64,000 nt of DNA from Cellulomonas sp. NS3 (GTDB lineage: Bacteria > Actinomycetota > Actinomycetes > Actinomycetales > Cellulomonadaceae). Location: positions 2,604,001 to 2,668,000 of the forward strand of contig NZ_CP103289.1 of the NCBI RefSeq assembly GCF_024757985.1. Direction: 5' to 3'. Numbering within the stretch: position 1 is the first letter of the stretch; every line of letters starts with the position of its first letter. This document shows positions 7,508-36,773 of this stretch, one piece after another. The notes under the pieces are model-generated. The model did no database searches, had not been told where the DNA came from, and saw only the letters and a list, made by a program, of their open reading frames with translations. The position numbers and the translations under genes were made by a program.

Positions 7508-8334
7508 CGTCCGTCCTCCACCGTGACCCCGCCGAGCGGGTCACCTGCGGCCGTGCCGCCGAGACCCGTCGCCGGGGCGCCCGGGGCGCGGTGCGCGCCC
7601 GTGCCCTCGTCGACCTCCTCGGTCCCGTAGACCGGGCCCGTGCCGTACGTCGAACCGGTCGTCCCGTAGGAGCCGGTCGACGTGCCGTACGTGCCGCCGG
7701 TCGTCTCGTAGCCCGTGGTCGTGGCCGCCGTGTCGGTCAGGCCGTAGCCCGTGCCCGTCGTCGCGTACTCGGTCGTCGCCGGGTAGGGCGTCGTGGTGTC
7801 CGTGTACGAGGCGGTCCCCGTCGTCGTGTCCTTGGCCGCGTCCTTGGCACCACGCGTCAGGCGTCCGGCGAGGACACCCGCGCCGACGGCGATCGCGAGG
7901 AACGTGCCGGGGCTGCGGCGCGCGAAGGTCTTGACCTCCTCGAGGAGGTCGGCCGGCTCCCGCGCCTCGAGCCAGGACGCGACGGAGTCGGTCCGGCCGG
8001 CGACCTGCCGGGCGATGTCCGCGGCGAGCCCGCCCTCGGAGCTCTCGGCCATCGAGCCGAGGTCGCTCCCGAAGGTCCGGATGCCGCTCGCGACGCGGCT
8101 CTGCTGCGAGCTCGCCTGGTCGGCGAGCCCCGCCCGCGTCTGCCCGAAGACGTCCTTGACCTGGCTCTTTGCCTCGTGCGCGACCTCGCGGGCCTGACTC
8201 TTCGCCTCCTGCGCGAGGTGCTGCGTGCTCTCCGCGGCGCTGTGGGCGACGCCCGACGCCTCCTCGCGGACGGCCTGTGCCGTCGATCCCTGCGAGCCGT
8301 CTGCCGGCTGAGCAGTTCCGTAGTCGTTCGTCAT
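7504..8334 (-). CDS. Low-complexity Tyr/Thr/Gly-tailed helical protein of the membrane/stress operon
   Basis: A 276-residue protein that I do not recognise by family. Residues 20-130 are polar helical repeats (HLAQEAKSQAREVAHEAKSQ) like LEA or YtxH-type proteins. A single hydrophobic helix, FLAIAVGAGVLAGRL, follows near residue 150. The C-terminal 110 residues are low complexity with recurring TTGYE, GTYGTSTGSYGTTG and GPVYGTEE units. The ATG at 8334 is preferred because GGAGGG sits 6 nt upstream; the ATG at 8340 directly abuts it. Its stop overlaps the holin-like start (ATGA, 7504-7507). Operon order and composition suggest an envelope or stress role. Confidence 0.7.
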
Positions 8335-8340
8335 CGTCAT

Positions 8341-8673
8341 CCCTCCGAGTCGACGGGATCCGTCGTGTGCTGTGGGGGTTCGGAGACGTCACCGCGGTGA
8401 GCATGCGGGACACCCACCCGAACCCTCCCTGGGTGGCGCCGACGACTTGCCTGCGTCGGTGCTTCGTGCCGCCCGGTCGAACGCCGTGGGACGCCGCCCG
8501 GGGACGTTGACGACGCTATGCACACCGGCAGGTGTCCGCCACCGGAGAGCCGCCCGCGGACCCCGCACCGTCAACCCGTACGGGGCCCGGCGAGCACACG
8601 TACTGATGGGCGGCAGGTGCGCCGGGAAGTCTGGTCGGCAACGTCCTTGCCGACCCCGGCCGAGAGGTCCTCC
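8341..8673 (+). promoter_or_regulatory. Intergenic region with a structured leader in front of nhaA
   Basis: No gene is supported in these 333 bases, which separate two divergent genes. The half nearest nhaA contains several stems. ACACC-GGCA-GGTGT lies at 8522-8535 and the palindrome CCCGTACGGG starts near 8576. A perfect 9-bp hairpin (GGTCGGCAA, loop CGTCC, TTGCCGACC) at 8633-8655 is enclosed by a GCCGG/CCGGC outer stem and ends 18 nt before the nhaA ATG. This looks like a folded 5' leader. Confidence 0.4.
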
Positions 8674-9990
8674 ATGACACCGCACGCCCCCGGATCGCCG
8701 CTGCTCACCCGAGGTTCGTGGGCCGAGGCGTCCCGCATCGCCGAGGTCCTGCGCAAGGAGACCGTCGGGGGTGCGCTCCTCCTGGTCGCGACCGTCGCGG
8801 CACTCGTCTGGGCGAACTCGCCCGCCGCGGGCTCCTACGCCGCGCTGCGCGACCTCGAGGTCGGACCGGAGGCGCTGCACCTGCACCTCTCGCTCGGCAC
8901 GTGGGCGGCGGACGGGCTGCTCGCGATCTTCTTCTTCGTCGTGGGCCTCGAGCTCAAGCGCGAGTTCGTCGCCGGCGACCTGCGCGACCCGCGGCGGGCG
9001 GCCCTGCCGATCCTCGCCGCCGTGGGCGGGATGGTCGTGCCCGCGCTGGTGTACGTGGCGCTCAACGCCGGGACCGCCGACGGCGCGCTGCGGGGCTGGG
9101 CGATCCCGACCGCGACGGACATCGCGTTCGCGCAGCTCGCGGTCCTCGCGGTCGTGAGCACCCACCTGCCGACCGCGCTGCGCACGTTCCTCCTCACGCT
9201 CGCGGTCGTGGACGACCTGCTCGCCGTGACGGTCATCGCGGTCTTCTATACGACGGAGCTGAACGTCGGCGCGCTGCTGCTGGCCCTCGTCCCGCTCGCG
9301 CTGTTCACCGTCGCCGTGCAGCGCCGGGTCCGCTCGTGGTGGCTGCTGCTGCCGCTCGCGTTCGCCACCTGGGCGCTCATGCACGCGTCGGGCGTGCACG
9401 CGACGGTCGCAGGCGTGCTGCTCGGCTTCGCGGTCCCGGTGGTCCGCAGCCACGCGGCGGGCGGCCCCGACGCGGGGCCGGGCCTCGCCGAGCACTTCGA
9501 GCACCGCTTCCATAGGCCGCTCTCCGCCGGGTTCGCGGTGCCCGTGTTCGCGTTCTTCGCGGCCGGGTGTGCCGTGGGCGGGCTGAGCGGGCTCGTCGAC
9601 TCGCTGCAGGACCGCGTCGCGCTCGGGATCGTCGCCGGGCTGGTCGTGGGCAAGACGGTCGGGATCCTCGGCACGACGTGGCTCGTCGCCAGGTTCACGC
9701 GCGCGCGGCTCGACGAGGGCCTGAGCTGGCTCGACGTGCTCGGCGTCGCGGTGCTCGGCGGCATCGGGTTCACGGTGTCGCTGCTGGTCGGCGACCTGGC
9801 GTTCGGTGCGGGCAGCGTGCGCGACGAGCACGTCAAGGTCGGCGTGCTCGCCGGCTCGGTGCTCGCCGCGCTGCTCGCGTCCGTGCTGCTGCGCGCCCGC
9901 AACCGCGCGTACCGGCGGATCCACGCGCTCGAGACCGCTGACCTCGACGCCGACGGGATCCCGGACGTGTACCAGCGCCCCGAGGGCTGA
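8674..9990 (+). CDS. nhaA: Na+/H+ antiporter NhaA
   Basis: A 438-residue inner-membrane sodium/proton antiporter of full family length. Expected motifs are present: [14 protein letters not shown] after the second helix, [10 protein letters not shown] with the helix-4 region Asp, and [14 protein letters not shown] with the paired Asp residues of the ion-binding site. [16 protein letters not shown] near residue 370 is also typical. It uses the proton gradient to export Na+ or Li+ and helps pH control. The ATG at 8674 (MTPHAPGS) follows GAGAGG. The extreme C-terminus ([16 protein letters not shown]) has a DxDxDG-type acidic tail not usual in NhaA; it could bind Ca2+. Confidence 0.93.
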
Positions 9991-9997
9991 GCAGGGC

Positions 9998-11649
9998 CTA
10001 GGTGGCCACGAGGTCGCGCCGCCGGAACGCCGCCGCACCCGCCGCCGTCAGCGCGAGCGCGACGACCGCCATGCCGACGAGCGGCGCTGCCTCGAGCGGC
10101 GCCTCCGGGACGGCGGGGACGAGCCCGAACGGCGCCGCGTCGAGCAGGGGCTGCGGGAGGTCGAGCAGCGGGCCGTACACGCCGACGACGATCGAGGCGA
10201 CGAGCACGACCCACACGCCCCAGGTCGGCGCCCCCAGCCCGTACGCGAGCACGGCGAGGCCGGCGAAGCACGCGAGGACGGGCAGGTAGGCGAGGCTCGC
10301 CAGCGCGAGCTCCCCGACCAGGCCCGGGGCGCCGAGCGATCCCGCGGCGCCGGCACCCAGCGCGAGCCCGGTGACGAGCAGCAGGAGCACCGACCCCCAG
10401 CCAGCGACGCGAGCAGGTGCTGTCCGAGCCAGGCGGTCCTGCTCACGCCGCACGCCAGGACGCCGGCCGCGCGGCCGTCGGCCTCCTCACGCCGCAGGTG
10501 GTGCACCCGAGACGACGGCGTGCACGACGACGGGCCATCGCGAAGAAGGACAGAAACGCCGAGACCGCGGCCCGCGCGAGGTCGCCGCCGCCCCCCGCGA
10601 ACAGCTCCGCGAGCTCGGGCCGGGCCTCGAAGCTCGCGACCTCGCTCTCCGCGAGCGACCCGGTGAGCAGCGCGAACACCCCGAGCCCGACCGCCCCCCC
10701 GAGCAGCCCGCCGCGCCCCAGGCGCACCGCGAGCCCGAACGGCGGACACGAGCGTGGCGCGCGCGTGCGTGCGCCCCGCCCGGGTCGCGGCGAGCAGCCC
10801 GGCACCGACGTCGCGGCGGTCCGCGAGCGCGTGGGCGAGCGCGGTCAGCGCCAGCCCGAGGACGGCGCACAGCGCGAGCGGCCACCAGCGCAGGTCGACG
10901 AAGGCGCGGCTCTGCTGGACCCACCCGATCGGCGAGGCCCACGACAGGGCGCTGCCGCCCACCTCCCGCGCGTCGCCGATCCCCCGCAGCACGTACGCGA
11001 GCCCGAGCAGCGCGCCCGCCGTGCCGGACGCCACGCGCGCGTGCTGCGCGAGCTGCGCCGTGACCCCCGCGAGGGACCCGAACACCCCAGCCGACGAGCG
11101 CGATCCCGGCGCCAGACGGCGACGGAGTCGGGCGCCGCGAGCCCCGCCCCTAGCAGCGGGAGCACCACGGCCGTCCCGACCGCGACGTTCGCGACCAGGA
11201 CGGCCCCGAGCGCCGCGGTCAGCGGTGCCCGGCGTCCCACCGCGACGGCCCGCACGAGATCGGCCCGGCCGACTCCTCCTCGGCCCGCGTCTGGCGGACC
11301 ACCAGGAAGACCGACATGAGGGGCCGCGGCGACCGCGAGCATCCCGAGCGTCTCGTTCGCGACCATGACACCGAGCGTGTAGTCGTCGAGCCCGTACCGC
11401 GGTCCGCCGAGGAAGGCCCCGGCGGGCTCGGCCATGATCGCGGCGCGCGTCCGGCGCGACGCCGCGTCGGGGGTAGACGCTCGGGAGCGCGACGACGACG
11501 TACCCGACGAGCCCGCCGAGGCTCAGCGCCCAGACGGCGATCCGGAGCCGGTCCCGGCGCAGCGCGAACCGCAGGAGGCGTCCGGCGCCGGCCGCGGGCC
11601 GGGCCCCGGCCCGCGTCCGCGGTGCACGGCCGGCCACCGTCGCCGTCAT
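9998..11649 (-). pseudogene. ABC-2 exporter permease (polyketide/antibiotic exporter type), multiply frameshifted
   Basis: Pieces in different frames join to a permease of about 550 residues. The start ([20 protein letters not shown], with [15 protein letters not shown]) lies just after the ATPase stop. Middle pieces include [27 protein letters not shown]-type helices and [20 protein letters not shown]. The end is intact from about 10450 to 9998 ([37 protein letters not shown]). The RGIGDA and [11 protein letters not shown] motifs match the TnrB3-like exporter permeases that pair with a CcmA-type ATPase in drug or tetronasin export. At least four frame changes are needed, so the sequence as given cannot make a full protein. 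Confidence 0.6.
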
Positions 11650-12614
11650 CGCGCACCCCGCGCGGGCGCGCCGGACGTCGCGTGCGCCCCGGAGCGCGCG
11701 GGCCCGTCGCCGGCCGGCTCGTAGTGGTGCACGAACAGCTCCTCGAGGCTCGGCGGGGCCGCCTGGAGGTGGACGATGCCGGACTGCGCCAGCACCGCCA
11801 GGACGCCCCGACATCGCCCCGCCGTCGACCGCGAACTGGACCTCCTCCCCGTCGACGCGCGCGTCGTGCACAGCCCGGTGCGCCCCCGACCCGGGCCAGC
11901 ACCTGCGCGGCGGGCGCCTCGCACTACGACGGTCACGTCCGTGCGGTGCAGGTGGCGCAGCTCCGCGAGCGTCCCGCTCTCGACGGCCCGGCCCGCGCGG
12001 ACGAGCGTGACCCGGTCGCACAGGCGCTCGGCCTCGGCGAGGAGGTGGCTCGAGAGCAGCACGGTCGCACCCCGGGCCACGACCTCGCCGACGCACTCCT
12101 GGAACACGAGCTCCATGAGCGGGTCGAGCCCGGACGTCGGCTCGTCGAGCACGTAGAGCTCGACGTCGCTCACGAGCGCCGCGACCAGGGCGACCTCTCT
12201 GCCGGTTGCCCTTCGAGTACGCGCGCGTCTTCTTGCCGGGGTCGAGGTCGAACCGCTCGAGGAGCTCGGCGCGGCGGCTGCGGTCGACCGGCCCGCGCAG
12301 CCCCGCGAGCACGTCGATCGCCTCTCCGCCCGTCAGCGACGGCCACAGGCTCACGTCGCCCGGGACGTAGGCGAGCCGGCGGTGCAGCGTGACGGCGTCG
12401 GCCCACGGGTCGGCGCCGAGCACGCGCACGAGCCGCCGTCGGCGCGCAGGAGCCCGAGCAGGACCCGGAGGGTCGTGGACTTCCCCGCGCCGTTCGGGGG
12501 TCCCGAGGAACCCGTGCACCTCGCCACGCTCTCGACGGTCAGGTCGAGACCGTCGAGCGCCCGCACGCGGCCGAACGACTTCGTGAGCTGCTGGACGTCG
12601 ATGACAGCACTCAT
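11646..12614 (-). pseudogene. ABC exporter ATP-binding protein, multiply frameshifted
   Basis: From the ATG at 12614, [20 protein letters not shown] begins a classic drug-export ATPase. The Walker A is still readable as [16 protein letters not shown] but in a shifted frame. Later pieces supply [20 protein letters not shown], the D-loop region [11 protein letters not shown], and [20 protein letters not shown]. The end, [17 protein letters not shown], is intact and its stop overlaps the permease start (ATGA, 11646-11649). Frame breaks occur near 12525, 12430, 12200, 11905 and 11815. Gene order and motifs make the identity firm; whether the damage is biological is doubtful. Confidence 0.65.
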
Positions 12615-13141
12615 GGCGGGTCCTCTCCCGGAGCTCAGGGGTCGGTGGTGCGGGGGTCGAGCGGCCCGTGCGGGCGAGGGAGCCGTGCGCCAGCGCGACG
12701 CGTCGCCGGGGTCCTCGGGCGGGTGCAGGCTCAGGCCGGGCAGGAGCGCCCGGGGGCCCTGGACGGTGCGGTACCGCGCGCGGGCCTGCTCGGTGGGCGG
12801 GCGTCCCGCCGCGCCTCCCGAGCCTCGCGGTCCTGCGTGCGCCGAGCGCATGCTCCAGCACCCAAACGGTCGTCCAGCACCACCGTCAAGCCGCTCTCAG
12901 CCCGCGCACAGCGCAGGTGACGCGACCCACCCTCTCGCGGGACCCGGCCGTGGAGCGGGGGACGGGTGCGCGCCGCCCGCCGCGGTTGCCGACGCCGGTC
13001 CCCCACCGCAGGATCGGTCGTACGACACCGCAGGCCCAGGACCGCGGCCGCGCGCCGTGCTCCGCCCGCGGGCGCGAGAGGAGAGCTCCGATGACCACGC
13101 AGCACGAGGGACGAGTCGCACCGGAGCGAGGGGGACGCACG
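12615..13141. other. Region without a confident gene; possible frameshifted small minus-strand frame
   Basis: No intact gene is supported. On the minus strand, pieces in three frames between about 12893 and 12636 could join into a short protein ([16 protein letters not shown], then [19 protein letters not shown], then ending DPRTTDP with a TGA just before the ATPase start). Codon use looks coding-like, but I recognise no family. An ATG at 13091 could alternatively extend the YihY-like gene by 17 residues (MTTQHEGR). Confidence 0.25.
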
Positions 13142-14298
13142 ATGAGCGAGCGCCGCAGCACCACGAAGGCCCAGACCGCCCCCGACCCCGAGGACCCGCG
13201 CAAGCCCGACGACCCGACGGACATGAGCAAGCCGGGGTGGAAGTACTCGCTCCGACTCCGCACGGTGACGGGAGTTCGGCCACGACCAGTGCACCGACCT
13301 GGCCGCGGCGCTCACCTACTACGGCGGTGCTCGCGATCTTCCCCGCGCTCATCGCGCTCATCTCCGTGCTCGGCGTGTTCGGGCAGGGCAAGAGCACGAC
13401 CGACGCGCTCGTCGAGGTCGCCGGAGGGCTCGTGCCCCCGAGGAGACGACGAACACGATCAAGGAGGTCATCGACGGGCTGCAGACCAACCAGGGGGCCG
13501 GCCTCGGCCTGGTCCTCGGCCTCGCGCGGGTGCCCTGTGTGTCCGCCTCGGGCTACGTCGGGGCGTTCAGCCGCGCGATGAACCGGATGTACGAGATCGA
13601 CGAGGGACGCCCGATCTGGAGAGCTGCGTCCCGCGATGCTGCTGGTGACGCTCATCAGCGTGATCCTCACCGCGATCGGCGCGCTCATCCTCGCGGTCAG
13701 CGGGCCCGTGGCCCAGGCGATCGGCGACGCGGTCGGGCTCGGCGACCAGGCCGTGACGATCTGGAACATCGCGAAGTGGCCGGTGCTGCTCGGGATCGTC
13801 ATCGTGGTCATCGCGATCCTGTACTACGCGACCCCGAACGTCCGGCAGCCCAAGTTCCGCTGGATGAGCACGGGCGCGCTCATCGCGATCGTCGTGTGGG
13901 CGCTCGCGTCGGCCGCGTTCGGGTTCTACGTCGCGAACTTCGGCAGCTACAACAAGACGTACGGCTCTCGCTCGCGACCGTCATCATCTTCCTGCTCTGG
14001 CTGTGGATCACGAATCTCGCGCTGCTGTTCGGCGCCGAGTTCGACGCGGAGGTCGAGCGCGGGCGCGAGCTCGAGGCCGGGATCGCCGCCGAGGAGGATC
14101 GATCCAGCTGCCGCCGCGCGACACGCGGGCCAGCGACAAGAAGGCGAAGAAGGCCGAGAAGGACGTGGAGGACGGCCGCTCGCTGCGACGCCGCCGGGCC
14201 GCCGAGCTCGAGGCGGAGGGCAAGGGGCCGTCGAGCGGGGACGCCGACGGCGAGCAGGGACGCGCGGTTGGCGACACCCGCCGGGAGCGCGCCGCTGA
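13142..14298 (+). pseudogene. YihY/BrkB-family membrane protein, multiply frameshifted
   Basis: Joined across at least seven frame breaks, the pieces give a protein of about 380 residues. MSKPGWKYSLRLR comes first, then AVLAIFPALIALISVLGVFG, then SASGYVGAFSRAMNRMYEID. The longest intact run follows from 13636, with VTLISVILTAIGALILAVSG and FGFYVANFGSYNKTYG. IIFLLWLWITNLALLFGAEF and a charged tail (DKKAKKAEKDVEDGR) complete it. The YVGAFSRAMNRMYE and NLALLFGAEFDAE motifs are diagnostic of the YihY/BrkB family of six-helix inner-membrane proteins. They are annotated loosely as ribonuclease BN or virulence factor but have no proven biochemical role. Breaks fall near 13265, 13318, 13437, 13535, 13615, 13965 and 14098. 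The end point is approximate. Confidence 0.6.
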
Positions 14299-14312
14299 CC
14301 CCCGACCCCGGC

Positions 14313-14838
14313 GTGCGGCTCCTGCTGCTGCCGACACCCACCTGCCGACCCGTGCGCGCGACCTCCCGGCGGAGGTCTGGGCGGCGGTCGCCGCGGCGGA
14401 CGTCGTGCTGCACGCCGGGGGACTGGTTCGACGTCACGCTCCTCGACGCGCTCGAGCAGCGCTGCGCGCGGCGGCTCGTCGGCTGCTGGGGCAACAACGA
14501 CGGGCCGGCCCTGAGGGCGCGCCTGCCGAGGTCGCCCGCGTCGAGCTCGGGGGGCTGTGCGTCGGGGTCGTGCACGAGACGGGGCGCCTCGACCGGCGCG
14601 CGAGGCCCGCGCGCCGACGACGCGGCCTACCCGGACTTCGACGTGCTGGTGTTCGGGCACAGCCACATCCCGTGGGACACCACGACGCCGCCACGCGCAC
14701 GGCTCCGGCTGCTCAACCCGGGCTCGCCGACCGACCGCCGGCGCCAGCCCGCGTGCACGTACCTGACGGCGCGGGCGCAGGACGGCGCGCTGCACGACGT
14801 TCGAGCTCCACCGGCTGCCGGTGCGCGCCGCACGCTGA
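14313..14838 (+). pseudogene. YfcE/MJ0936-type metallophosphoesterase, frameshifted
   Basis: The pieces give a small calcineurin-like phosphodiesterase of about 175 residues. They are VRLLLL plus a damaged ADTHLP metal motif, LPAEVWAAVAAADVVLHAG, FDVTLLDALEQRC, VGCWGNNDGPALRARLP (the GNND metal/catalytic motif), PDFDVLVFGHSHIPWDT (the GHS motif), and LLNPGSP, ending ELHRLPVRAAR. Family enzymes hydrolyse phosphodiesters with two metal ions. At least three single-base breaks are needed. It follows the YihY-like gene closely and converges on the TetR gene. GTG 14313 is a best guess for the start; a TTG at 14268 is another. Confidence 0.6.
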
Positions 14839-14893
14839 CCGGCACCCGTCGCCCCGTCCCGGGCGGACGACGCCCGGGGCCGGCCGACCACGC

Positions 14894-15536
14894 TCAGATG
14901 CAGCGAACGCCGGCTCCGGCCCGCGACGGCCGCTGTGAGGATCGCGTCGATCGCGAACGCCGACGCGTGCGCGAGGTCGACCGCCTCGGGGTCGAGCAGC
15001 CACTGGACCTGGAGCCCGTCCATGACGGCGAGCACCGCGGCGGCGGCGGCGTCGAGCTCGCGGTCGGCCGGCGGGTCGTCGGGGTCGCACACCTCGCGCA
15101 GGGCGGCACCCACGTCGGCGCGCAGCTGGGTGTACCGGTGCCGGAACCAGTCCTTCGCCGGGTGGCCCTCGGTGACCGACTCCGCGGAGAGCACCGCGTA
15201 CGTCTGGACGATCCCGGCACGGTCGGCGTTGAGCCGCGCGGTCGTCACGAGGTGCCGGAACAGGTCGAGGCCGCCCGGGATGTGCTGGCCCTCGAGGTGC
15301 TCGACGTCCGTCTTGTCGCGGAAGTCGAGCATCTCGAGGAGCAGCAGGTCCTTGGACCCGAAGTGGTGGAGGACCCCCGCGTGCGTCATGCCGACCTGGT
15401 CGGCGATCTCCGCGAGCGAGCCGTTCTTGTACCCCCGGCTGCCGAACGTGGTGATGGCGGCGCGCAGGATGTCCTCGCGCCGTCGGGCGGTCTCCTCGCG
15501 GGGCCGCTGGGCGCGTCGTGGCGCACGTGTCGACAT
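14894..15536 (-). CDS. TetR-family regulator, probable controller of the GH3/Opp-type operon
   Basis: A TetR repressor of about 213 residues. The N-terminal HTH is intact at roughly residues 20-65 (ILRAAITTFGSRGYKNGS, LAEIADQVGMTHAGVLHHF). The ligand domain contains GHPAKDWFRHRYTQLRAD and AVLAVMDGLQVQWLLDPEAV. The uninterrupted frame has no stop near the expected end and runs on antisense; a frame change near 14930 reaches a TGA at 14894 and gives a normal length, so one indel at the 3' end is likely. It is divergent from the GH3 remnant. A 22-bp palindrome lies 26 bp upstream of its ATG, and a related one precedes the importer operon at 23967. Confidence 0.75.
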
Positions 15537-15562: not shown

Positions 15563-15584
15563 CATTACTGACAGGTTAGTAATG
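15563..15584. promoter_or_regulatory. Probable TetR operator, copy 1
   Basis: A 22-bp palindrome with arms CATTACTGAC and GTTAGTAATG around AG; 9 of 10 arm positions pair. It lies between the TetR gene and the GH3 remnant, so it can control both. The half-site TTACTGAC recurs as its exact complement in the dyad at 24046-24067. Confidence 0.65.
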
Positions 15585-15633
15585 CATGCTTCGATGGCTT
15601 CTGTCCGGCGACGACGCCCGCATCGGAGACCCT

Positions 15634-16089
15634 GTGACGACCACGCACTCCCCCGCCGCGCCCGGCTCGGAACCGGGCGGGACGACCTGGCGGTACGACG
15701 ACGCGTACCAGGTGCTCGCCGCCGAGGCCGACGCGGTGCGCCTCGAGGTCGACGTCACCAACACCGGCCCGCGGCGCGGCACGGCGACCGTCGAGGTGTA
15801 CCTCGAGGCGGAGCCGGTCGACGGGCTGGACCGCCCGGAGCGCTGGCTCGCCGGGCACACGACCGTGACGGCCGAGTCCGGGACCCGCACCGCCGCGACC
15901 GTACGGCTGCCCCGGCGCACGTTCGAGGTCTGGGACGCGTCCCGCCGCCTGTGGACCACCCCGCCCGTGCGGTACCGCGCACGCATCGGTCGCTCCGTGC
16001 GCGAGCTGCCGCTGACCGTCGAGGTCGTGCCCCTCGGCGTCCCCACCGCGCGCCTCGGTGGCGCGGGCACCGGGCGCGCCCGGCGCTGA
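15634..16089 (+). pseudogene. Remnant of a GH3 glycosidase: C-terminal Fn3-like domain only
   Basis: The 151-residue frame from GTG 15634 starts with a short Thr/Pro-rich leader, then switches at GGTTWRYDDA into a typical GH3 C-terminal fibronectin III-like domain: AVRLEVDVTNTGPRRGTATV, RWLAGHTTVTAESG, RRTFEVWDASRRLWTTPP, YRARIGRSVRELPLTVEV. The two catalytic GH3 domains, about 600 residues, are absent. The leader plus domain stays in frame, so this looks like an internal deletion that kept the original start and end. The TetR operator lies in front. It cannot be enzymatically active as given. Confidence 0.6.
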
Positions 16090-16142
16090 ACCCCCGCCCG
16101 GCACCCGCCCGCGGGGGCTCGGCAGTCGCACCGCTCCGCGCG

Positions 16143-16162
16143 GGGCGCCGTCACCGGCGCCC
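16143..16162. terminator. Hairpin between convergent GH3 genes
   Basis: A perfect 8-bp stem (GGGCGCCG / CGGCGCCC) with loop TCAC lies between the GH3 remnant ending at 16089 and the GH3 gene ending at 16219 on the other strand. Confidence 0.45.
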
Positions 16163-16218
16163 AGCCCCGGCCGCCCGCCTGCACCCGGGCGTCCGCGGCG
16201 TCGCGCACCGGGGACCGG

Positions 16219-18513
16219 TCAGAGCCGGGCCTCGAAGCGCGCGGTCAGCAGAGCCTCCGGCCGCGACGACGGCCCGACGAGCACCTCGAACGCCCCGGCC
16301 TCGACGACCCGGTGCCCCGCCGCGTCCACGACGGTGCACGCCGCGACGGGGAGCGTGAGCTCGACGGTCTCCGCCGCGCCGGGCGCCACCTCCACCCGCC
16401 GGTACGCCTTGAGCTCCCGGTCCGCCCAGCTCACGGACGCCACGGCGTCGCGCACGTACAGCTGCACGACCTCGTGGGCCGGGCGCTCCCCGACGTTGCG
16501 GACGGTGACCCGGGCGCGGACGGTGTCGTGGACCGTGTACGCGTCCGCGTCCAGCCGCAGGTCCTCGTAGACGACCTCGCTGTAACCGAGGCCGTGACCG
16601 AAGGGGAACGCCGGCCGCTGCGTGAGGTCGGCGTACCGGTCGCCGTGCTGGCCGCGGATCTGGTTGTAGTACGTCGGCTGCTGACCGACGTGCCGGGCGA
16701 ACGAGACCGGCAGCCGGCCCGCCGGCTCGACGACGCCGAGCAGCAGCTCCGCCAGCGCCTGACCGCCCTGCATGCCGGGGTTCGCGGCCCACACCAGGGC
16801 GCCTGCGCGGTCGGCGGACGCGGGCAGCACCAGCGGCTTCGACGCCAGCAGGACGACCACGGTGGGCGTCCCCGTGGCCACGACGGCGTCGAGCAGCGCG
16901 ACCTGCGACCCGACGAGCTCCAGCGTCGCGGTCGAGCGCGCCTCCCCGACGAGCTCGATGCGGTCACCGACGACGACGACGGCGACGTCCGCCGCGGCCG
17001 CGGCCTCGACGGCTGCGGCGAGCTGGTCCTCGTCGACCGGCGCCGGGACGACGACCGGCCAGCGCGGCTGCCCGTCGGGGAACCGGTCCCCCTCGGGGTC
17101 GGGCTCGAGCGTGAGGATCTCGGCGCCGCGGGCGTGGTCGACGGACCAGTCCACCGGGACCGTCGCCCGCAGCCCGTCGAGCACGGTGCGGATCATCGAG
17201 CGGGGGTGGCCGTCCGGCATCCAGTCCACCTGGCCCGAGCTGCCGGCCCAGTCGCCGAGCTGCGCCTGCGCGTCGTCGGCGAGCGGCCCGAGGACCGCGA
17301 CGCGCCGGGCCGGGCCGTGCCCGACCGCGCGGCCCGTGGCGTCCGTGGTGCCCGGCGTGAGCGGCAGCACGCCGTCGTTGCGCAGCAGCACCAGCGACCG
17401 GCGGGCGACCTCCAGGTTCAGCGCCGCGTGCTCGGGCGCGCCGACGCACGCACGGATGCGCTCCGCGTCGGGCACGCGCGGATCCTCGAACAGCCCGAGC
17501 TCGAACTTGAGCGTGAGGATGCGGGCGGCGGCGCGGTCGAGGTCCGGCTCCGCGAGCAGGCCGCGGTCGACGGCCTCCAGCGCGCCCTCGAAGAACCGGG
17601 GCGTGGCCATGATCATGTCGTTGCCGGCCCGCACCGCGGCGGCGGCGGCGTGGGCGAGGTCGGGCTGCACCTTCTGCTCCCACACCATGCGGCCCACGTT
17701 GTCCCAGTCGGTGACGAGGATGCCGGTGTAGCCCCACTCGCCGCGCAGCACCTCGGTGAGCAGCCACTCGTTGACGGTGATCGGCACCCCGTCGAGGGTC
17801 TGGTAGCCGAGCATGAACGTGCGGCACCCCTCCCGGGCGACCCGCTCGAACGGCGGCAGGAACCACGAGCGCAGCTTGCGGTGCGAGAGGTCCGCCTCGC
17901 TCGCGTCCCGGCCGCCCTGCGTCTCGGAGTAGCCGGCGAAGTGCTTCGCGGAGGCGAGCACGGCGGTCGCGTCGCCGAGCCCGCCGCCCTGGTACCCCCG
18001 CACCATCGCCGAGGCGAGCTCGCCGATGAGGAACGGGTCCTCGCCGAACGTCTCGTCGACGCGGCCCCACCGCAGGTCACGGGCGATGCACAGCACCGGG
18101 GAGAACGTCCAGTGGATGCCGGTCGCGGCGGCCTCGACGGCGGTCGCACGGGCCACCCGCTCCACGAGCCCGGCGTCCCACGCAGCGGCCATGCCCAGCT
18201 GGGTCGGGAAGATCGTCGCGCCCTCGAAGAACGAGTGGCCGTGGATGCAGTCCTCCGCGACCAGCAGCGGGATGCGCAGCGGCGTGCGGGCGACGAGCTC
18301 GTGCTGGCGCGCGAGGTGCTCGGGCGACGCGTGCAGGATCGAGCCGACGTGGCGCTCCAGCACCTGGTCGTCGATGCCCTCGCGCGCGTCGAGCTGCATC
18401 ATCTGCCCGACCTTCTGCTCCACGCTCATGCGGGAGACCAGGTCGGCGACGCGCTCGTCGACCGGCAGCGCCGGGTCGAGGTAGGGGGCGGTGCCGACGT
18501 CGGTGGCGGTCAC
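16219..18513 (-). CDS. GH3 beta-glycosidase, last gene of the Opp-type importer operon
   Basis: A 764-residue intracellular GH3 enzyme with no signal peptide. The N-terminal TIM-barrel domain contains IPLLVAEDCIHGHSFFEGAT, SAKHFAGYSETQGGRD, and the nucleophile Asp in GILVTDWDNVGRM near residue 268. The alpha/beta sandwich follows (SLVLLRNDGVLPL, VAVVVVGDRIE), then PFGHGLGYSEVVYEDL and an Fn3-like tail. It hydrolyses terminal beta-linked sugars from oligosaccharides, probably glucose or xylose. The GTG start overlaps the permease stop (GTGA, 18510-18513). This places it in the same transcript as the importer and implies that it cleaves what the importer brings in. Confidence 0.9.
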   Translation of the reverse strand: MTATDVGTAPYLDPALPVDERVADLVSRMSVEQKVGQMMQLDAREGIDDQVLERHVGSILHASPEHLARQHELVARTPLRIPLLVAEDCIHGHSFFEGATIFPTQLGMAAAWDAGLVERVARATAVEAAATGIHWTFSPVLCIARDLRWGRVDETFGEDPFLIGELASAMVRGYQGGGLGDATAVLASAKHFAGYSETQGGRDASEADLSHRKLRSWFLPPFERVAREGCRTFMLGYQTLDGVPITVNEWLLTEVLRGEWGYTGILVTDWDNVGRMVWEQKVQPDLAHAAAAAVRAGNDMIMATPRFFEGALEAVDRGLLAEPDLDRAAARILTLKFELGLFEDPRVPDAERIRACVGAPEHAALNLEVARRSLVLLRNDGVLPLTPGTTDATGRAVGHGPARRVAVLGPLADDAQAQLGDWAGSSGQVDWMPDGHPRSMIRTVLDGLRATVPVDWSVDHARGAEILTLEPDPEGDRFPDGQPRWPVVVPAPVDEDQLAAAVEAAAAADVAVVVVGDRIELVGEARSTATLELVGSQVALLDAVVATGTPTVVVLLASKPLVLPASADRAGALVWAANPGMQGGQALAELLLGVVEPAGRLPVSFARHVGQQPTYYNQIRGQHGDRYADLTQRPAFPFGHGLGYSEVVYEDLRLDADAYTVHDTVRARVTVRNVGERPAHEVVQLYVRDAVASVSWADRELKAYRRVEVAPGAAETVELTLPVAACTVVDAAGHRVVEAGAFEVLVGPSSRPEALLTARFEARL

Positions 18514-19526
18514 GCGTCGTCCGAGGTGGACGTCGTGGTCCGCACGGCCGTCACCGGGTCGTTGACGTCGAGGCCCCGCCTCTTCATGGCGCGGGCGCGC
18601 TCGCCGGCGGACCGCAGGCGCGGGTTGACGTACTCGTCGATCCCGAAGTTGATGAGCGACAGCGCCACGCCGATGGCGGCGATGCACAGCCCCGGCGGCA
18701 GGAACCACCACCACTGGTTCTGCCGGAACGCTCCCTGGGCGCCGGCCCAGTTCAGGATCGTGCCCCAGTTGTAGGTGTTCACCGGGATCACCCCGATGTA
18801 GGAGAGCGTCGTCAGGCCGAGGATCGCGGCGGTCACCGTGCCGACGAAGCTCGCCGCGATGAGCGCCATGAGGTTGGGCAGCATCTCGTTGCCGATGATG
18901 CGGCGCAGCGGCTCGCCGTTCGCGCGGGCGGCCTGGACGAAGTCGCGGTTGCGGAGCGACATCGTCTGCGCGCGCAGCACCCGGGCCCCCCAGGCCCAGC
19001 CCGTGAGGCCCAGCACGGCAGCGATCACCACGAGCGGGGGGTCGTCGAACATCGAGGCCACGATGATGATCAGCGGCAGCCCCGGGATGACGAGGAAGAC
19101 GTTCGTCAGCGCCGAGAGGCTCTCGCTGCGCCAGCCGCGCAGGTAGCCCGCGACGACCCCGACGACGACCGCGATGATCGTCGCCATGATCGCGGCGAGG
19201 AAGCCGACGACGATCACGCCGCGCGTGCCGTGGACGACCTGGCTGAGCACGTCCTCACCGAGGTGGGTCGTGCCGAGCCAGTGCTCCGCCGACGGCGGCT
19301 GCAGGCGCGCCGTGTTGTCGACCTTGGTGGGCGAGTACGGCGCGAGGACGTCCGCGAGGATCGCGACGAGCACGAAGAACCCGAGGATCGCCAGGCCGGT
19401 GATCGACTTGCGGTTGCGGAACATCGCGAAGGCGGACGCCAGGCGGACGCGGACCGTCGCCCTCGGACGCGGTGCGCGCACCGGGGCGAGCTCGGGCGCC
19501 GGCTCCGTGCGGAGGTCGGTGGTCAT
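18510..19526 (-). CDS. ABC importer permease, DppC/OppC type
   Basis: A 338-residue inner-membrane permease of the peptide/nickel-type importer family. It has an N-terminal OppC_N-type helix (SITGLAILGFFVLVAILADV) and then HWLGTTHLGEDVLSQVVHGT, the usual OppC signature. The cytoplasmic coupling loop is ANGEPLRRIIGNEMLPNLM (EAA-like region). About six helices are visible. The sequence QNQWWWFLPPGLCIAAIGV is typical of the C-terminal part. The neighbouring GH3 gene points to oligosaccharide rather than peptide transport, as known for Opp-like sugar importers in several polysaccharide degraders. Confidence 0.88.
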   Translation of the reverse strand: MTTDLRTEPAPELAPVRAPRPRATVRVRLASAFAMFRNRKSITGLAILGFFVLVAILADVLAPYSPTKVDNTARLQPPSAEHWLGTTHLGEDVLSQVVHGTRGVIVVGFLAAIMATIIAVVVGVVAGYLRGWRSESLSALTNVFLVIPGLPLIIIVASMFDDPPLVVIAAVLGLTGWAWGARVLRAQTMSLRNRDFVQAARANGEPLRRIIGNEMLPNLMALIAASFVGTVTAAILGLTTLSYIGVIPVNTYNWGTILNWAGAQGAFRQNQWWWFLPPGLCIAAIGVALSLINFGIDEYVNPRLRSAGERARAMKRRGLDVNDPVTAVRTTTSTSDDA

Positions 19527-19529
19527 GGT

Positions 19530-20603
19530 TCAGGCCTCCGTCTGGCGGGTGCGAGGGTCGAGGAACGCGTAGGCGACGTCGGCCAGGATGTTGGCGACGA
19601 GCACGGACAGCGTGATCACGAGGAACACGCCCTGCATCAGGGCGTAGTCCTTCGCGTTGGTGGCGTCCAGGAGCAGCTTCCCGACGCCGGGGTAGCTGAA
19701 GACCATCTCCATGACGATGGTGCCGCCGACGATGAACCCGATCGAGAGCGCGAAGCTCTGGATCTGCGGGAGCACGGCGTTGCGCGCGGCGTAGCGCCAG
19801 AGCACGCGGCTGTTGGGCAGGCCCTTGGCCTGCGCCACCGTGACGTAGTCCTCGTCGAGCACCGTAAGCATCATGTTGCGCATCCCCAGCATCCAGCCGC
19901 CGAGCGAGGCGATCACGATGGTCACCGCGGGCAGCGTGCCGTGGTGGACGACCTGGCCGATGAACTCCGCCGACCACTCCGGCCGCATCCCGACCCCGTA
20001 GGCCTTGCCGATGGGGAACCACCCGAGGTTCACCGAGAACAGCGCGATCCCCAGCAGCCCCAGCCAGAAGTAGGGGATCGTCGCGAGGAACGTGGTCACG
20101 GGGATGAGCGCGTCGAGCCGGCTCCCCCGGCGCCAGCCGACGATCGCGCCGCCGACGGTCCCGATCGCGAACGAGACGACGGTCGCGAAGCCGACGAGGC
20201 CCACGGTCCACGGCAGCGCCTGGCTGATCACCTCGGTGACCGGGCGCAGGCCGTGCAGCAGCGAGACGCCGAGGTCGCCCCGAAGCAGCAGGGCCCAGTA
20301 GTCGACGTACTGCTGCACGAGGGTCTTGTCGGTGTCCAGGCCGAGCAGCGACCGCAGCGCGTCGGCCGCCTCGGGGCTGACGTTGCGGTTGCGGGACAGG
20401 TACTGGTCGACCGCGTCGCCCTTCATCATGCGCGGCAGGAAGAAGTTGATCGTGACCGCGGCCCACAGGGTGAAGAGGTAGAACGCGGCGCGCCCGGCGA
20501 GGAACCGCCACGGGATACGCGAGCGGCCCTTGACGGCGGTGGTCGCCGTGGTGCCGACCTCGAGGGCGTCCTGGGTGGGCATCGCGGGCTGGACGGCGGT
20601 CAC
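19530..20603 (-). CDS. ABC importer permease, DppB/OppB type
   Basis: A 357-residue permease. The first helix FYLFTLWAAVTINFFLPRM and the following periplasmic NRNVSPEAADALRSLLGLD are OppB-like. The core includes ATIPYFWLGLLGIALFSV and the coupling segment QAKGLPNSRVLWRYAARNA. The late motif VMEMVFSYPGVGKLLLDAT is the strongest family marker. GTG start overlaps the stop of the ATPase gene (GTGA, 20600-20603), and its own stop lies 3 bp before the OppC start. It forms the heterodimeric channel with the protein encoded at 18510. Confidence 0.88.
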   Translation of the reverse strand: MTAVQPAMPTQDALEVGTTATTAVKGRSRIPWRFLAGRAAFYLFTLWAAVTINFFLPRMMKGDAVDQYLSRNRNVSPEAADALRSLLGLDTDKTLVQQYVDYWALLLRGDLGVSLLHGLRPVTEVISQALPWTVGLVGFATVVSFAIGTVGGAIVGWRRGSRLDALIPVTTFLATIPYFWLGLLGIALFSVNLGWFPIGKAYGVGMRPEWSAEFIGQVVHHGTLPAVTIVIASLGGWMLGMRNMMLTVLDEDYVTVAQAKGLPNSRVLWRYAARNAVLPQIQSFALSIGFIVGGTIVMEMVFSYPGVGKLLLDATNAKDYALMQGVFLVITLSVLVANILADVAYAFLDPRTRQTEA

Positions 20604-21405
20604 AGCGCACCTCCGAGCGAGCCGGACAGCGAGGCGAAGTGCGCCTCGGGGTCGGGGGACGCCGCGCGCAGCTCCCGGGTGTAGGGGTCCTGCGGGCGGA
20701 GGATGACGTCGTCGGCCGGGCCGCGCTCGACGACCCGTCCCTGGTTGAGCACCATGATCTCGTCGCTGAAGTGCCGGGCGGTCGCCAGGTCGTGGGTGAT
20801 GTAGAGCACGCCCAGACCCTCCTCCCGCCGCAGGTCGGCGAGCAGGTTGAGCACCCCGAGGCGGATCGAGACGTCGAGCATGGAGACCGGCTCGTCGGCC
20901 ACGAGGAGGCGCGGCCGGGAGGCCAGCGCCCGGGCGATCGCGACGCGTTGCCGCTGGCCGCCCGACAGCTCGTGCGGGCGGCGGTCGACCACCACGTCGG
21001 GGTCGAGCCGCACCCGCTCCAGCAGCCGCCGCACCTCGTCCTCCTGCTCGGACCGGGGCACCACGTCGTCGAGGCGCAGCGGTCGCTCGAGGTGATAGCG
21101 CACGGAGTGGTACGGGTTGAGCGACGCGAACGGGTCCTGGAAGACCATCCGCAGCTTCTGGCGGTACGCCCGCAGCCCGGCCCCGCGGCGCGGGATCGGC
21201 TCCCCGTCGAGGCGGACCTGCCCGCTCGTCGGCGTCTCGAGCTGCGTGAGGATCTTCGCGATCGTCGACTTGCCGCTGCCGGACTGGCCGACGAGCCCGA
21301 TCGTCTGACCGGACGTCAGGGTGAAGCTCACGTCGTCGAGCGCCTTGATCTGGCCTGCGCCACGGACCGCGTAGGTCTTGGTGACGCCGTCGAACTCCAG
21401 GACGG

Positions 21406-21409
<4 letters not shown>
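20600..21409 (-). CDS. ABC importer ATPase, OppF/DppF type
   Basis: A 269-residue nucleotide-binding protein with all motifs: Walker [14 protein letters not shown]-loop [12 protein letters not shown], signature [17 protein letters not shown], Walker [13 protein letters not shown], and H-loop [14 protein letters not shown]. It ends with [16 protein letters not shown], the shortened C-terminal region of OppF-type subunits. Start ATG 21409 overlaps the stop of the partner ATPase. It powers uptake together with the protein at 21406. Confidence 0.9.
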
Positions 21410-22230
<821 letters not shown>

Positions 22231-22263
22231 CAGTGCGGGCTCGCTCTCGTGGATGTCGGCGAT

Positions 22264-22295
22264 GGCGGGGCGGGTGCGCGCGCACCCGCCCCGCC
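22264..22295 (-). terminator. Intra-operon hairpin after the binding-protein gene
   Basis: A perfect 14-bp stem (GGCGGGGCGGGTGC / GCACCCGCCCCGCC) with a 4-nt loop GCGC lies between the substrate-binding protein stop and the first ATPase. Such hairpins commonly protect or partly end the transcript, so that the binding protein is made in excess over the membrane parts. That use here is inference. Confidence 0.5.
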
Positions 22296-22305
22296 GTGGA
22301 CGGGA

Positions 22306-23967
22306 CTACTCGGCGGGCTCCAGGTTCACCAGGACCTGGACGACCCCCGGCTGCGTCGGGTCGGCGGACGCGTACGCGTCCTCCTCCGACGGCCACCCGA
22401 CGTAGTTGCGGGTGTTGAACTCACCGAGCAGCGGGTGCGAGCCGAGCGGGATGGCCGGCACCTGCTCGACGAACGCCTTCTGCAGCACGGCCGAGGCGGC
22501 CGCGCGGTCCTCGTCGGAGGACGCGGTGGCGTAGGTGTTCAGCGCCTCGGTGACCGCGGGGTCGTTGAACCGGCCGAAGTTGAACTGCGCCTTGTCGTCG
22601 ACGATCCACTTCGGGTCCATCGTCGAGGTGTACAGGCCGTACGCGTTCCCGGTGTCCTCGAGCCAGTGGATGATCGCCTGGAAGGTGCCCTCCTGGCGCG
22701 CGGCGTCCCAGCCGCCCCAGTCGGGCTGGTCGACGACGACCTCGATGCCCAGGGCCTCGTTCAGCTCCTCGGCGATCAGCGCCTGCTCCGTGTTCCAGTC
22801 GCTCCACCCGGCGGGCACGGAGATCGTGAACGAGACCCGCTCGCCGTCGGGGTCGACCAGGGCCTCGTCCTGCCAGGTGTAGCCGGCGTCGGTGAGGATC
22901 TGCCGGGCCTTGTCGACGTCGACCGAGTAGTCCTCGCCCTGGTACTCGGGGACGATCTCGTCCTCCAGCACTCCGCCGAGCCCGGTGGCGTTCCAGACGA
23001 CCTCGCTCGCGCCCTCACGGGCGATGTCGACGTAGGCCTGACGGTCGATCGTCCAGGCGAGCGCCTTGCGCAGCGCCACGTCGTCGAACGGCTTGGTCTG
23101 CAGGTTCATGAACAGCGTGCCGGCGCCCGCGGTGGGCGCGGCGAGGAACTGGTTGTCCTCGTCGGCGGACAGGTAGCTGTCCTCGATCTGCGGGATGAAC
23201 GCCTGAGCCCAGTCGGCCTCGCCCGAGACGAGCGCCGTGGTGAGGGCGGCGTTGTCGCCGTAGGAGATGTAGTGCAGCTCGGGCACCGCCAGCTCGCCAC
23301 CCCAGTAGTCGGGGTTCGCCTCGAGGGTGACGGACTCCGTCGACCACGAGTCGAGCACGTACGGACCGGTGCCCACGGCCAGGCCGTCCTCCGTCAGCGG
23401 GTCGGTGTTCGGGTCGGCGATGTTCTCCCAGATGTGCTTCGGCACGATCGGGGTGTGCAGCACCCGCGCCTGGGCGGTGTACTTCGAGTTGGCGAACTTC
23501 AGGGTGATGGCGTCGCCGTCGACCGTCGCGCCCTCGTAGCCCAGACCCGAGGTGTCGGTGAGCGTGCCGTTGAGGTACTGGTCGAAGGTGAAGACGATGT
23601 CGTCACCGGTGAACTCGGTGCCGTCGCTCCACGTCACGCCGCTGCGCGGGACCACCGTGAGCTCGGTGTAGTCGTCGTTCCACTCCACCGACTCGGCGAG
23701 CCACGGGGTGGTCCCGAGGTCCCCCGTGGGGTTCACGAGCGCCAGCGGTTCGAAGATCACCTTGGCGTAGCCGTACTTCGAGGCCGACGAGTCCCCCAGG
23801 TACGGGTTGTGCGACTCGGTGGTGATCGCGCCGTCGGGCTTCGCGATCGTGAGGGCGGCGCCGCCTTCGGCAGGGGTGCCGGCGGTGCCGTCCTGTGACG
23901 ACGAGCAGGCGGTCAGCACGAGCGCCGTCGCGACGCTCAGGGTGACGAGGGAGGACCGTAGCTTCAT
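22306..23967 (-). CDS. Extracellular solute-binding protein family 5 (lipoprotein) of the Opp-type importer
   Basis: A 553-residue lipoprotein. The signal peptide ends in LVLTACSSS, a lipobox with Cys near residue 21. The mature part has the family-5 motifs: TTPWLAESVEWNDDYTELTV, VTWSDGTEFTGDDIVFTFDQ, LALRKALAWTIDR-like FDDVALRKALAWTIDRQAYV, and the late GWSDWNTEQALIAEELNEAL. It would capture an oligosaccharide or peptide outside the membrane; the linked GH3 gene favours a beta-linked oligosaccharide. The ATG at 23967 follows AAGGAGAA. A 22-bp dyad matching the TetR operator lies about 80 bp upstream. Confidence 0.9.
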   Translation of the reverse strand: MKLRSSLVTLSVATALVLTACSSSQDGTAGTPAEGGAALTIAKPDGAITTESHNPYLGDSSASKYGYAKVIFEPLALVNPTGDLGTTPWLAESVEWNDDYTELTVVPRSGVTWSDGTEFTGDDIVFTFDQYLNGTLTDTSGLGYEGATVDGDAITLKFANSKYTAQARVLHTPIVPKHIWENIADPNTDPLTEDGLAVGTGPYVLDSWSTESVTLEANPDYWGGELAVPELHYISYGDNAALTTALVSGEADWAQAFIPQIEDSYLSADEDNQFLAAPTAGAGTLFMNLQTKPFDDVALRKALAWTIDRQAYVDIAREGASEVVWNATGLGGVLEDEIVPEYQGEDYSVDVDKARQILTDAGYTWQDEALVDPDGERVSFTISVPAGWSDWNTEQALIAEELNEALGIEVVVDQPDWGGWDAARQEGTFQAIIHWLEDTGNAYGLYTSTMDPKWIVDDKAQFNFGRFNDPAVTEALNTYATASSDEDRAAASAVLQKAFVEQVPAIPLGSHPLLGEFNTRNYVGWPSEEDAYASADPTQPGVVQVLVNLEPAE

Positions 23968-24045
23968 TGCTTCTCCTTCGATGTGCGGGGGTACGGTGCG
24001 GCCGCAACCCCAGGGCGCTCTCCACGATGAGGGTGCGCGGCGTGA

Positions 24046-24067
24046 ACTTACCGATGAGTCAGTAAGT
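24046..24067. promoter_or_regulatory. Probable TetR operator, copy 2, in the importer operon promoter
   Basis: Arms ACTTACCGA and TCAGTAAGT (8 of 9 pairs) form a 22-bp dyad of the same length and centre as the site at 15563-15584. Its right half GTCAGTAA is the exact complement of TTACTGAC in copy 1. It lies about 80 bp upstream of the binding-protein ATG. TTTACA at 24072-24077 (minus strand) could be an associated -35 element. Confidence 0.6.

Positions 24068-35040: not shown

Positions 35041-36773
<1,733 letters not shown>

What the first reader, a model, noticed from the sequence alone, without database searches (positions are those of the whole stretch)
15563..24067. Two matched 22-bp TetR-type operators link a GH3 remnant to an Opp-type GH3 importer operon
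Seen: a dyad at 15563-15584 (arms CATTACTGAC / GTTAGTAATG) next to the TetR gene, and one at 24046-24067 (ACTTACCGA / TCAGTAAGT) in front of the importer operon. Both are 22 bp with the same centre, and the right half of the second (GTCAGTAA) is the exact complement of the left half of the first (TTACTGAC). Known: TetR proteins usually bind a palindrome beside their own gene. Inference: this TetR controls uptake and cleavage of one oligosaccharide, a regulon not obvious from gene order since the sites are 8.5 kb apart.
Basis: partly seen in the sequence, partly recalled or inferred. Interest (0 to 1): 0.72.

Follow-up and report, generated by a model that had tools for sequence, protein, structure and literature searches.

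The report
TetR switch for beta-1,3-glucan use
Two matching DNA switches in this Cellulomonas-like genome belong to a widely conserved set that probably lets one repressor protein turn on both the breakdown and the uptake of beta-1,3-glucans, the sugars of fungal walls, algae and some bacterial stores.

Summary
Both 22-bp dyads are at the stated places. A profile trained only on tetR-upstream sites of other named genomes ranks them first and second in the window (31.0 and 24.8; next 2.8).

The motif, about ACTTACTGACNNGTCAGTAAGT, is upstream of 76 of 79 tetR orthologues examined, against 4 of 1312 random windows. Importer genes are in 76 of 80 such loci.

In the window's genome 9 places match at 3 or fewer mismatches; 8 pass the profile. 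They precede tetR, the importer, a second GH3 of the same family, a CBM11-GH3 protein, a beta-1,3-oligosaccharide phosphorylase, GH64, GH16 and GH55 genes. In relatives, 25 of 28 profile-passing regions away from tetR have GH55, GH16 or GH3 first.

The pair is mosaic: the tetR falls outside the clade that normally accompanies this importer type, and its own GH3 is reduced to a C-terminal remnant.

Binding, inducer and repression are untested. Only 4 of 30 GH55 and 2 of 30 GH64 loci sampled carry the site.

The parts
14919..15536 (-). TetR-family regulator, residues 1-206 (start ATG at 15536); the stop is displaced by small indels relative to C. cellasea NBRC 3753
   Evidence: PF00440 2.5e-12 and PF13977 1.6e-9; orthologue printed as 100% identical in G001; end compared
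15563..15584 (.). operator 1, 27 bp upstream of tetR and before the divergent GH3 remnant
   Evidence: profile score 24.8, second best in the window; same place in G001
15634..16089 (+). C-terminal (Fn3-like) remnant of a Celf_0468-type GH3 gene; catalytic part absent. That operator, leader and start codon of the old gene are kept is a reading by eye
   Evidence: PF14310; NF052330 positions 690-815 of 817; aligns with four intact relatives from about residue 712-720 on, the first 14 residues do not align clearly
16219..18513 (-). GH3 enzyme, exo-beta-1,3/1,6-glucosidase type
   Evidence: NF052331 1374.5 bits, cut-off 1330
18510..19526 (-). OppC-type permease
   Evidence: PF00528, PF12911
19530..20603 (-). 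OppB-type permease
   Evidence: PF00528
20600..21409 (-). ABC ATPase 2
   Evidence: PF00005
21406..22230 (-). ABC ATPase 1
   Evidence: PF00005
22306..23967 (-). solute-binding protein, SBP_bac_5 family; first gene of the operon
   Evidence: PF00496 1.8e-63; among nearest solved chains 1zty, named chitin oligosaccharide binding protein
24046..24067 (.). operator 2, beginning 79 bp upstream of the binding-protein gene
   Evidence: profile score 31.0, best in the window; a site stands before the same gene in G001 and in seven further close importer loci L137-L143
24069..24074 (-). -35-like hexamer TTTACA beside operator 2
   Evidence: TTTACA stands within a base or two of the operator in 6 of 9 close importer loci L135-L143; the other three read TATACA, TTGACA and TGGACA. 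Promoter role inferred

Best explanation
The two dyads are operators of one TetR-family repressor that governs a scattered beta-1,3-glucan utilisation regulon. Without substrate the TetR dimer sits on the dyads over the promoters. When a beta-1,3-gluco-oligosaccharide (or a product) is taken up and bound by the TetR, it releases. Secreted GH55, GH64 and GH16 enzymes then cut the polymer, the Opp-type importer brings in the oligomers, and GH3 and phosphorylase enzymes finish them inside the cell. In this lineage the regulator comes from an ancestral tetR/GH3/importer locus that lost its importer and most of its GH3. It now most likely serves an importer whose own tetR is gone. Shown: sites, conservation, target identity by family, tree position. 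Inferred: binding, repression, inducer, transport substrate, cell location of the enzymes.
For: Conservation: 76 of 79 tetR orthologues in other named genomes have a site at 4 or fewer mismatches in a 360-bp stretch reaching 300 bp upstream, against 4 of 1312 random windows. Importer genes are in 76 of the 80 loci (my reading). Own genome: 8 of 9 places at 3 or fewer mismatches pass the profile (score over 10), and these 8 precede tetR, the importer or glucan-type enzyme genes. Relatives: of 32 fetched regions with a listed site away from tetR, 28 pass the profile, all 28 intergenic by my ORF calls, and 25 have GH55 (18), GH16 (3), GH3 of the same family (3) or CBM11-GH3 (1) as first gene, in 19 genomes of 6 genera. 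Motif presence follows TetR presence: 61 of 79 genomes with the TetR against 5 of 42 without, Fisher P 2e-12, phylogeny not corrected (from the lists). Mosaic: the 67-row branch holding every B and A2 type regulator in the tree has support 100/100 and excludes the window, while the importer's binding protein is 87-92% identical to eight close loci of that importer type.
Against: The site is on only a minority of candidate genes: 2 of 30 GH64 and 4 of 30 GH55 upstream flanks, against 0 of 30 GH6 and 0 of 90 downstream flanks. Five of the own-genome sites are weak (profile 10.6-19.5). Between G000 and G001 the GH64 and GH16 sites lie in stretches conserved throughout, so their conservation is not selective evidence. 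GH16 and GH3 families hold other activities too, and the substrate of the CBM11-GH3 protein is untested. Three of 28 relative regions have no fitting target (L213, L214, L234). 18 of 79 TetR genomes have no site at 2 or fewer mismatches, and 5 of 42 genomes without the TetR have one. Distant B loci (Microbacterium type) deviate from the consensus at up to 4 positions. No binding, expression or inducer data. Which TetR acts at operator 2 is not shown.
Confidence: 0.8

Rival explanations
1. Operator 2 is a relic of the lost native TetR of this importer type; the present TetR binds only operator 1.
For: The native regulator clade was not found in this genome: one match at E 1e-45, and at E 1e-30 only a 42% paralogue besides, which falls in the outgroup. 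Tree position excludes the window tetR from that clade.
Against: Operator 2 still scores 31.0, 30.1 and 35.8 in three genomes with no native regulator found (G000, G001, G138), although the binding protein differs by about 8% between G000 and the other two. Distal sites in the own genome fit the same profile. Window-type and close B-type loci share the same core motif.
Confidence: 0.12
2. The sites serve another regulator of the cell, and the match with tetR is coincidental.
For: TetR binding is untested; at least one other related TetR gene exists in the genome.
Against: The site is upstream of tetR itself in 76 of 79 orthologous loci, and motif presence follows TetR presence across genomes.
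Confidence: 0.05
3. The importer and enzymes serve another sugar, such as cello- or chito-oligosaccharides, and the beta-1,3-glucan reading is wrong.
For: Solved relatives of the binding protein include chitin- and mannoside-binding proteins; the Celf_0468 GH3 model is named plain beta-D-glucosidase.
Against: Targets include GH55 (close to solved chains 4pew and others), GH64, a relative of a beta-1,3-oligosaccharide phosphorylase (6hq6, 1038.6 bits) and exo-beta-1,3/1,6-glucosidase models over cut-off. None of 30 GH6 loci has the site.
Confidence: 0.1
4. The dyads are chance palindromes in a GC-rich genome.
For: 79 stretches in the window pair at 9 or more of 11 positions.
Against: The shared AT-rich motif is found nowhere else in the window at comparable score and is conserved in other species.
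Confidence: 0.01

Closest known systems
CebR/CelR (LacI family) cellulose regulon of Actinobacteria (passages of PMC4898821 and PMC3377646 read)
   Same: One repressor with a palindrome scattered before glycoside hydrolases and an oligosaccharide ABC importer
   Different: Regulator is TetR family, the motif is TTACTGAC-type and not TGGGAGCGCTCCCA, the importer is Opp/SBP_bac_5 type, and the targets are beta-1,3-glucan-type genes
TetR/AcrR family repressors (best solved chain TtgR, matching residues 10-77 only)
   Same: HTH domain and an imperfect dyad upstream of the own gene
   Different: Targets are carbohydrate breakdown and import, not efflux (efflux role of TtgR from recall)
Opp-type oligosaccharide importers with SBP_bac_5 binding proteins (1zty and others)
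   Same: Binding protein, two permeases, two ATPases
   Different: In an operon with an exo-beta-1,3/1,6-glucosidase; none of the NCBIfam models shown for its subunits reached its cut-off (for each ATPase only the best 25 were shown)

Membership tests
TetR-family transcriptional regulator | N-terminal TetR HTH domain | tested here: met
   PF00440 46.8 bits, cut-off 24
TetR-family transcriptional regulator | dyad operator close to its own gene, conserved in orthologues | tested here: met
   27 bp upstream; site in 76 of 79 orthologous loci
TetR-family transcriptional regulator | ligand-relieved DNA binding | not testable with these tools
   needs purified protein
exo-beta-1,3/1,6-glucosidase (NF052331) | score over the equivalog cut-off | tested here: met
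   operon GH3 1374.5 and second GH3 1432.3 bits, cut-off 1330; the CBM11-GH3 protein does not reach it (300.4)
Celf_0468-type GH3 (NF052330) | full-length match over cut-off | tested here: not met
   remnant 92.7 bits, positions 690-815 of 817 only; three relatives with catalytic domains 1001-1125 bits, also below the 1300 cut-off
Opp/Dpp-type ABC importer | SBP_bac_5 protein, two permeases and two ATPases in one operon | tested here: met
Opp/Dpp-type ABC importer | substrate is a beta-1,3-gluco-oligosaccharide | not testable with these tools
   inferred from the shared motif with beta-1,3-glucan-type enzymes
single regulon | same motif before functionally related genes in the same genome | tested here: met
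   9 places found; 8 pass the profile and precede tetR, importer or glucan-type enzyme genes; the ninth fails it
single regulon | co-expression and loss of repression in a tetR mutant | not testable with these tools
   no expression data

The most novel reading that the evidence does not exclude
A TetR-family sugar sensor is the master regulator of beta-1,3-glucan (laminarin, curdlan, fungal wall) use across Micrococcales and some other actinobacteria, a role that LacI-type repressors play for cellulose. In the Cellulomonas cellasea-like genomes and Actinotalea ferrariae a regulator from one paralogous locus has taken over an importer operon whose own regulator was lost, without a change of operator.
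Probability: 0.6. Interest if true: 0.65.

Novelty: new variant of a known kind. Interest (0 to 1): 0.55.

Why it matters
No listing from ten searches of the held library showed a paper on a TetR-controlled beta-1,3-glucan regulon in actinobacteria (open-licence papers only). The motif gives a direct way to predict laminarin, curdlan and fungal-wall degradation genes, including GH55, GH64 and phosphorylase genes, in Cellulomonadaceae and their kin. It also bears on an open remark in PMC3544764 (passage read) that it is unclear how C. flavigena reutilises the curdlan it makes. The mosaic pair is a natural test of how regulators are swapped between paralogous operons that share one operator code.

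Tried and rejected
Palindromicity as evidence: rejected, 79 stretches in the window pair at 9 or more of 11 positions. GTACTGACCGGTCAGTAC-type sites: near matches, but the own-genome one (4273785) scores -0.7 and the regions L207, L211 and L212 have no place above 10; set apart as another motif. Sampling GH64 and GH55 genes as such: weak enrichment (2 of 30, 4 of 30; GH6 0 of 30; flanks shortened by contig ends were not corrected), so the site marks some members, not the families. A shift of operator sequence after the regulator swap was considered and not seen by eye in L135-L142. BLAST 'GH64' labels for the 538- and 476-aa proteins in L231, L233 and L235 come, I judge, from a shared ricin-type lectin domain, which Pfam shows in the L231 protein and in the own GH64; not counted as GH64.

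From my own judgement or recall: names A1, A2 and B for neighbour types are mine, and loci were assigned to them by eye. 'LacI-type is the usual carbohydrate regulator', the label GH149 for relatives of 6hq6, the GH55 identity of the 4pew entries (the tool names them putative secreted protein; the title of a 2015 GH55 laminarin paper was seen in a reference list), and the biochemical origin of the NF052330/NF052331 names are recalled.

One search translated a wrong frame of tetR; P0001 was not used. Structure prediction was not run because nothing in the argument turned on it. No genome-wide profile scan of the own genome was possible, so sites with 4 or more mismatches there are unknown. The listing was cut, so sites in the unlisted genomes were not looked at.

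Full report
Observation. The two dyads are at the stated coordinates with the stated arms. Symmetry alone is common in this GC-rich window (79 stretches with 9 or more of 11 pairs), so I tested the motif. A symmetric 22-position profile was trained on distinct sites upstream of tetR orthologues in named loci L015-L093; the near-identical locus L014 (C. cellasea NBRC 3753) was left out. 76 of 79 loci had a site at 4 or fewer mismatches in a stretch from 300 bp upstream to 60 bp into the gene; L050, L089 and L091 had none. Random 360-bp windows of the same loci had one in 4 of 1312. The profile ranks operator 2 (31.0) and operator 1 (24.8) first and second in the window, with 2.8 next.

Anatomy. 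tetR (minus strand, residues 1-206 intact) has operator 1 at 27 bp. Divergent from it is a short open frame, the C-terminal Fn3-like part of a GH3. The operon SBP5-ATPase-ATPase-OppB-OppC-GH3 is on the minus strand and reads towards tetR, with operator 2 beginning 79 bp upstream of SBP5. The operon GH3 passes the NCBIfam exo-beta-1,3/1,6-glucosidase cut-off (1374.5 against 1330). The remnant matches only positions 690-815 of the Celf_0468-type model. Against four intact relatives it aligns from about residue 712-720 on. Its first 14 or so residues do not align clearly; that operator, leader and start are kept from the old gene is a reading by eye. So the two GH3 genes are of different subfamilies.

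Relatives. The TetR has orthologues in 126 of 200 family genomes at E 1e-45 (200 drawn from a larger group). Of the 80 named loci, I read importer genes in 76 (not in L016, L019, L050 and L091). Three layouts occur. A1: tetR | GH3(Celf_0468-like)-SBP-ATPase-OppB-OppC-ATPase. A2: tetR | GH3(Celf_0468-like)-SBP-ATPase-ATPase-OppB-OppC. B: tetR | SBP-ATPase-ATPase-OppB-OppC-GH3(exo-1,3/1,6). In B loci of close relatives (L137, L139-L142) operator and distance match the window (72-75 bp from site to gene match, window 75), with TTTACA or a variant beside the operator. Site 2 thus lies in the likely promoter, which suits repression by occlusion (inferred). More distant B loci (Microbacterium type) differ from the consensus at up to 4 positions.

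Regulon. In the own genome the pattern with up to 3 mismatches gives 9 places, control 1. Eight score above 10: SBP5 31.0, a second exo-1,3/1,6 GH3 30.3, tetR 24.8, GH64 19.5, GH16 16.8, GH55 15.8, a CBM11-GH3 protein 15.1, and a site of 10.6 between a protein with a weak concanavalin-like match (below Pfam's cut-off) and a relative of a solved beta-1,3-oligosaccharide phosphorylase. The ninth (4273785), between what look by eye like an MFS gene and another tetR, scores -0.7 and is set apart. In G001 the second-GH3, GH64, GH16 and phosphorylase sites are present too. The region of the second GH3 has diverged with gaps, yet the dyad arms remain; the GH64 and GH16 regions are conserved throughout and so tell nothing special.

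In 121 family genomes with up to 2 mismatches (the listing was cut, so this covers the listed part) I fetched the 32 regions whose listed sites, outside G000 and G001, are not beside a tetR. Four fail the profile (L207, L209, L211, L212). The other 28 hold a site that is intergenic by my ORF calls. In 25 the first gene is GH55 (18), GH16 (3), the same GH3 family (3) or CBM11-GH3 (1); 3 have no fitting target. Several are close kin (six from one genus with one GH55), so the independent number is smaller: 19 genomes of 6 genera. GH55 identity was checked against solved chains for the own enzyme and two relatives, and for the rest by BLAST to the own GH55.

Results against. Sampling the enzyme families first gives much weaker figures: site above 10 upstream of 2 of 30 GH64 (G000 and G001 only) and 4 of 30 GH55 loci, against 0 of 30 GH6, and 0 of 90 downstream flanks (the 30 loci returned by each). 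18 of 79 TetR genomes have no place at 2 or fewer mismatches, and 5 of 42 without the TetR have one. In C. carbonis, which keeps a native-type tetR beside the importer (L137), the orphan window-type tetR has only a weak site (8.6). GH16 and GH3 families hold other activities too.

Mosaic origin. In a tree of 117 TetR rows, 67 rows, among them every B and A2 row, form a branch with support 100/100. The window and C. cellasea NBRC 3753 lie outside it with A1 rows (100/83 with L017; 91/76 with L015 and L005). The window's binding protein is 92% identical to those of G001, C. carbonis and A. ferrariae, 87-89% to five further close loci and 48-66% to the other matches listed. No B-type tetR was found in the own genome. 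A. ferrariae shows the same state: an orphan tetR (78% identical) with a strong site (34.9), and a B importer with a strong site (35.8) and no tetR beside it. The simplest account is loss of the native regulator and service by the A-type TetR, which reads the same core motif.

Literature. Passages of PMC3377646, PMC4898821, PMC12772271 and PMC3544764 were read by term search; other papers only as listings. The first two describe CelR/CebR cellulose regulation and hold no occurrence of TetR in their main text. PMC3544764 notes predicted curdlanases GH16, GH55 and GH64 in C. fimi and that curdlan reuse in C. flavigena is unclear. No listing showed a TetR beta-1,3-glucan regulon in actinobacteria; most subscription journals are not held.

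Verdict. Real operators and a real, conserved regulon, broader than claimed; mechanism inferred from family and site position; regulator-importer pair mosaic.

Noticed in passing
window 8000-15000: Many frameshifting indels against C. cellasea NBRC 3753 (3 to 13 per kb, against 0 to 2 per kb from 15 to 22 kb); ORFs there are broken, which suggests poor sequence quality or decay. The tetR stop codon is displaced by this.
   Followed up: partly
L166:2286 (own genome 4273785), L207, L211, L212: A second palindrome family, GTACTGACCGGTCAGTAC type, beside what look by eye like an MFS gene with its own tetR, and near ABC-type genes in relatives; probably another TetR operator.
   Followed up: partly
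L239:2094-7144: A beta-1,3-oligosaccharide phosphorylase relative divergent from a protein with only a weak concanavalin-like match, sharing one site; the latter may be an unrecognised beta-glucanase.
   Followed up: partly
L231, L233, L235: Two sites in one intergenic region between a lectin-GH55 gene and an alginate-lyase-like gene (Pfam shown for L231) in one genus.
   Followed up: partly
L213:3531: A perfect site (0 mismatches) between what looks by eye like a polysaccharide deacetylase gene and a small membrane protein, with no glucan gene next to it.
   Followed up: no
L016/L179: In Actinotalea ferrariae the orphan tetR lies between a large protein that looks GH16-like by eye and phage-like genes.
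   Followed up: no
window 35346-36773: Protein that looks by eye like a GH10 xylanase with a C-terminal CBM2-type domain; not tested.
   Followed up: no
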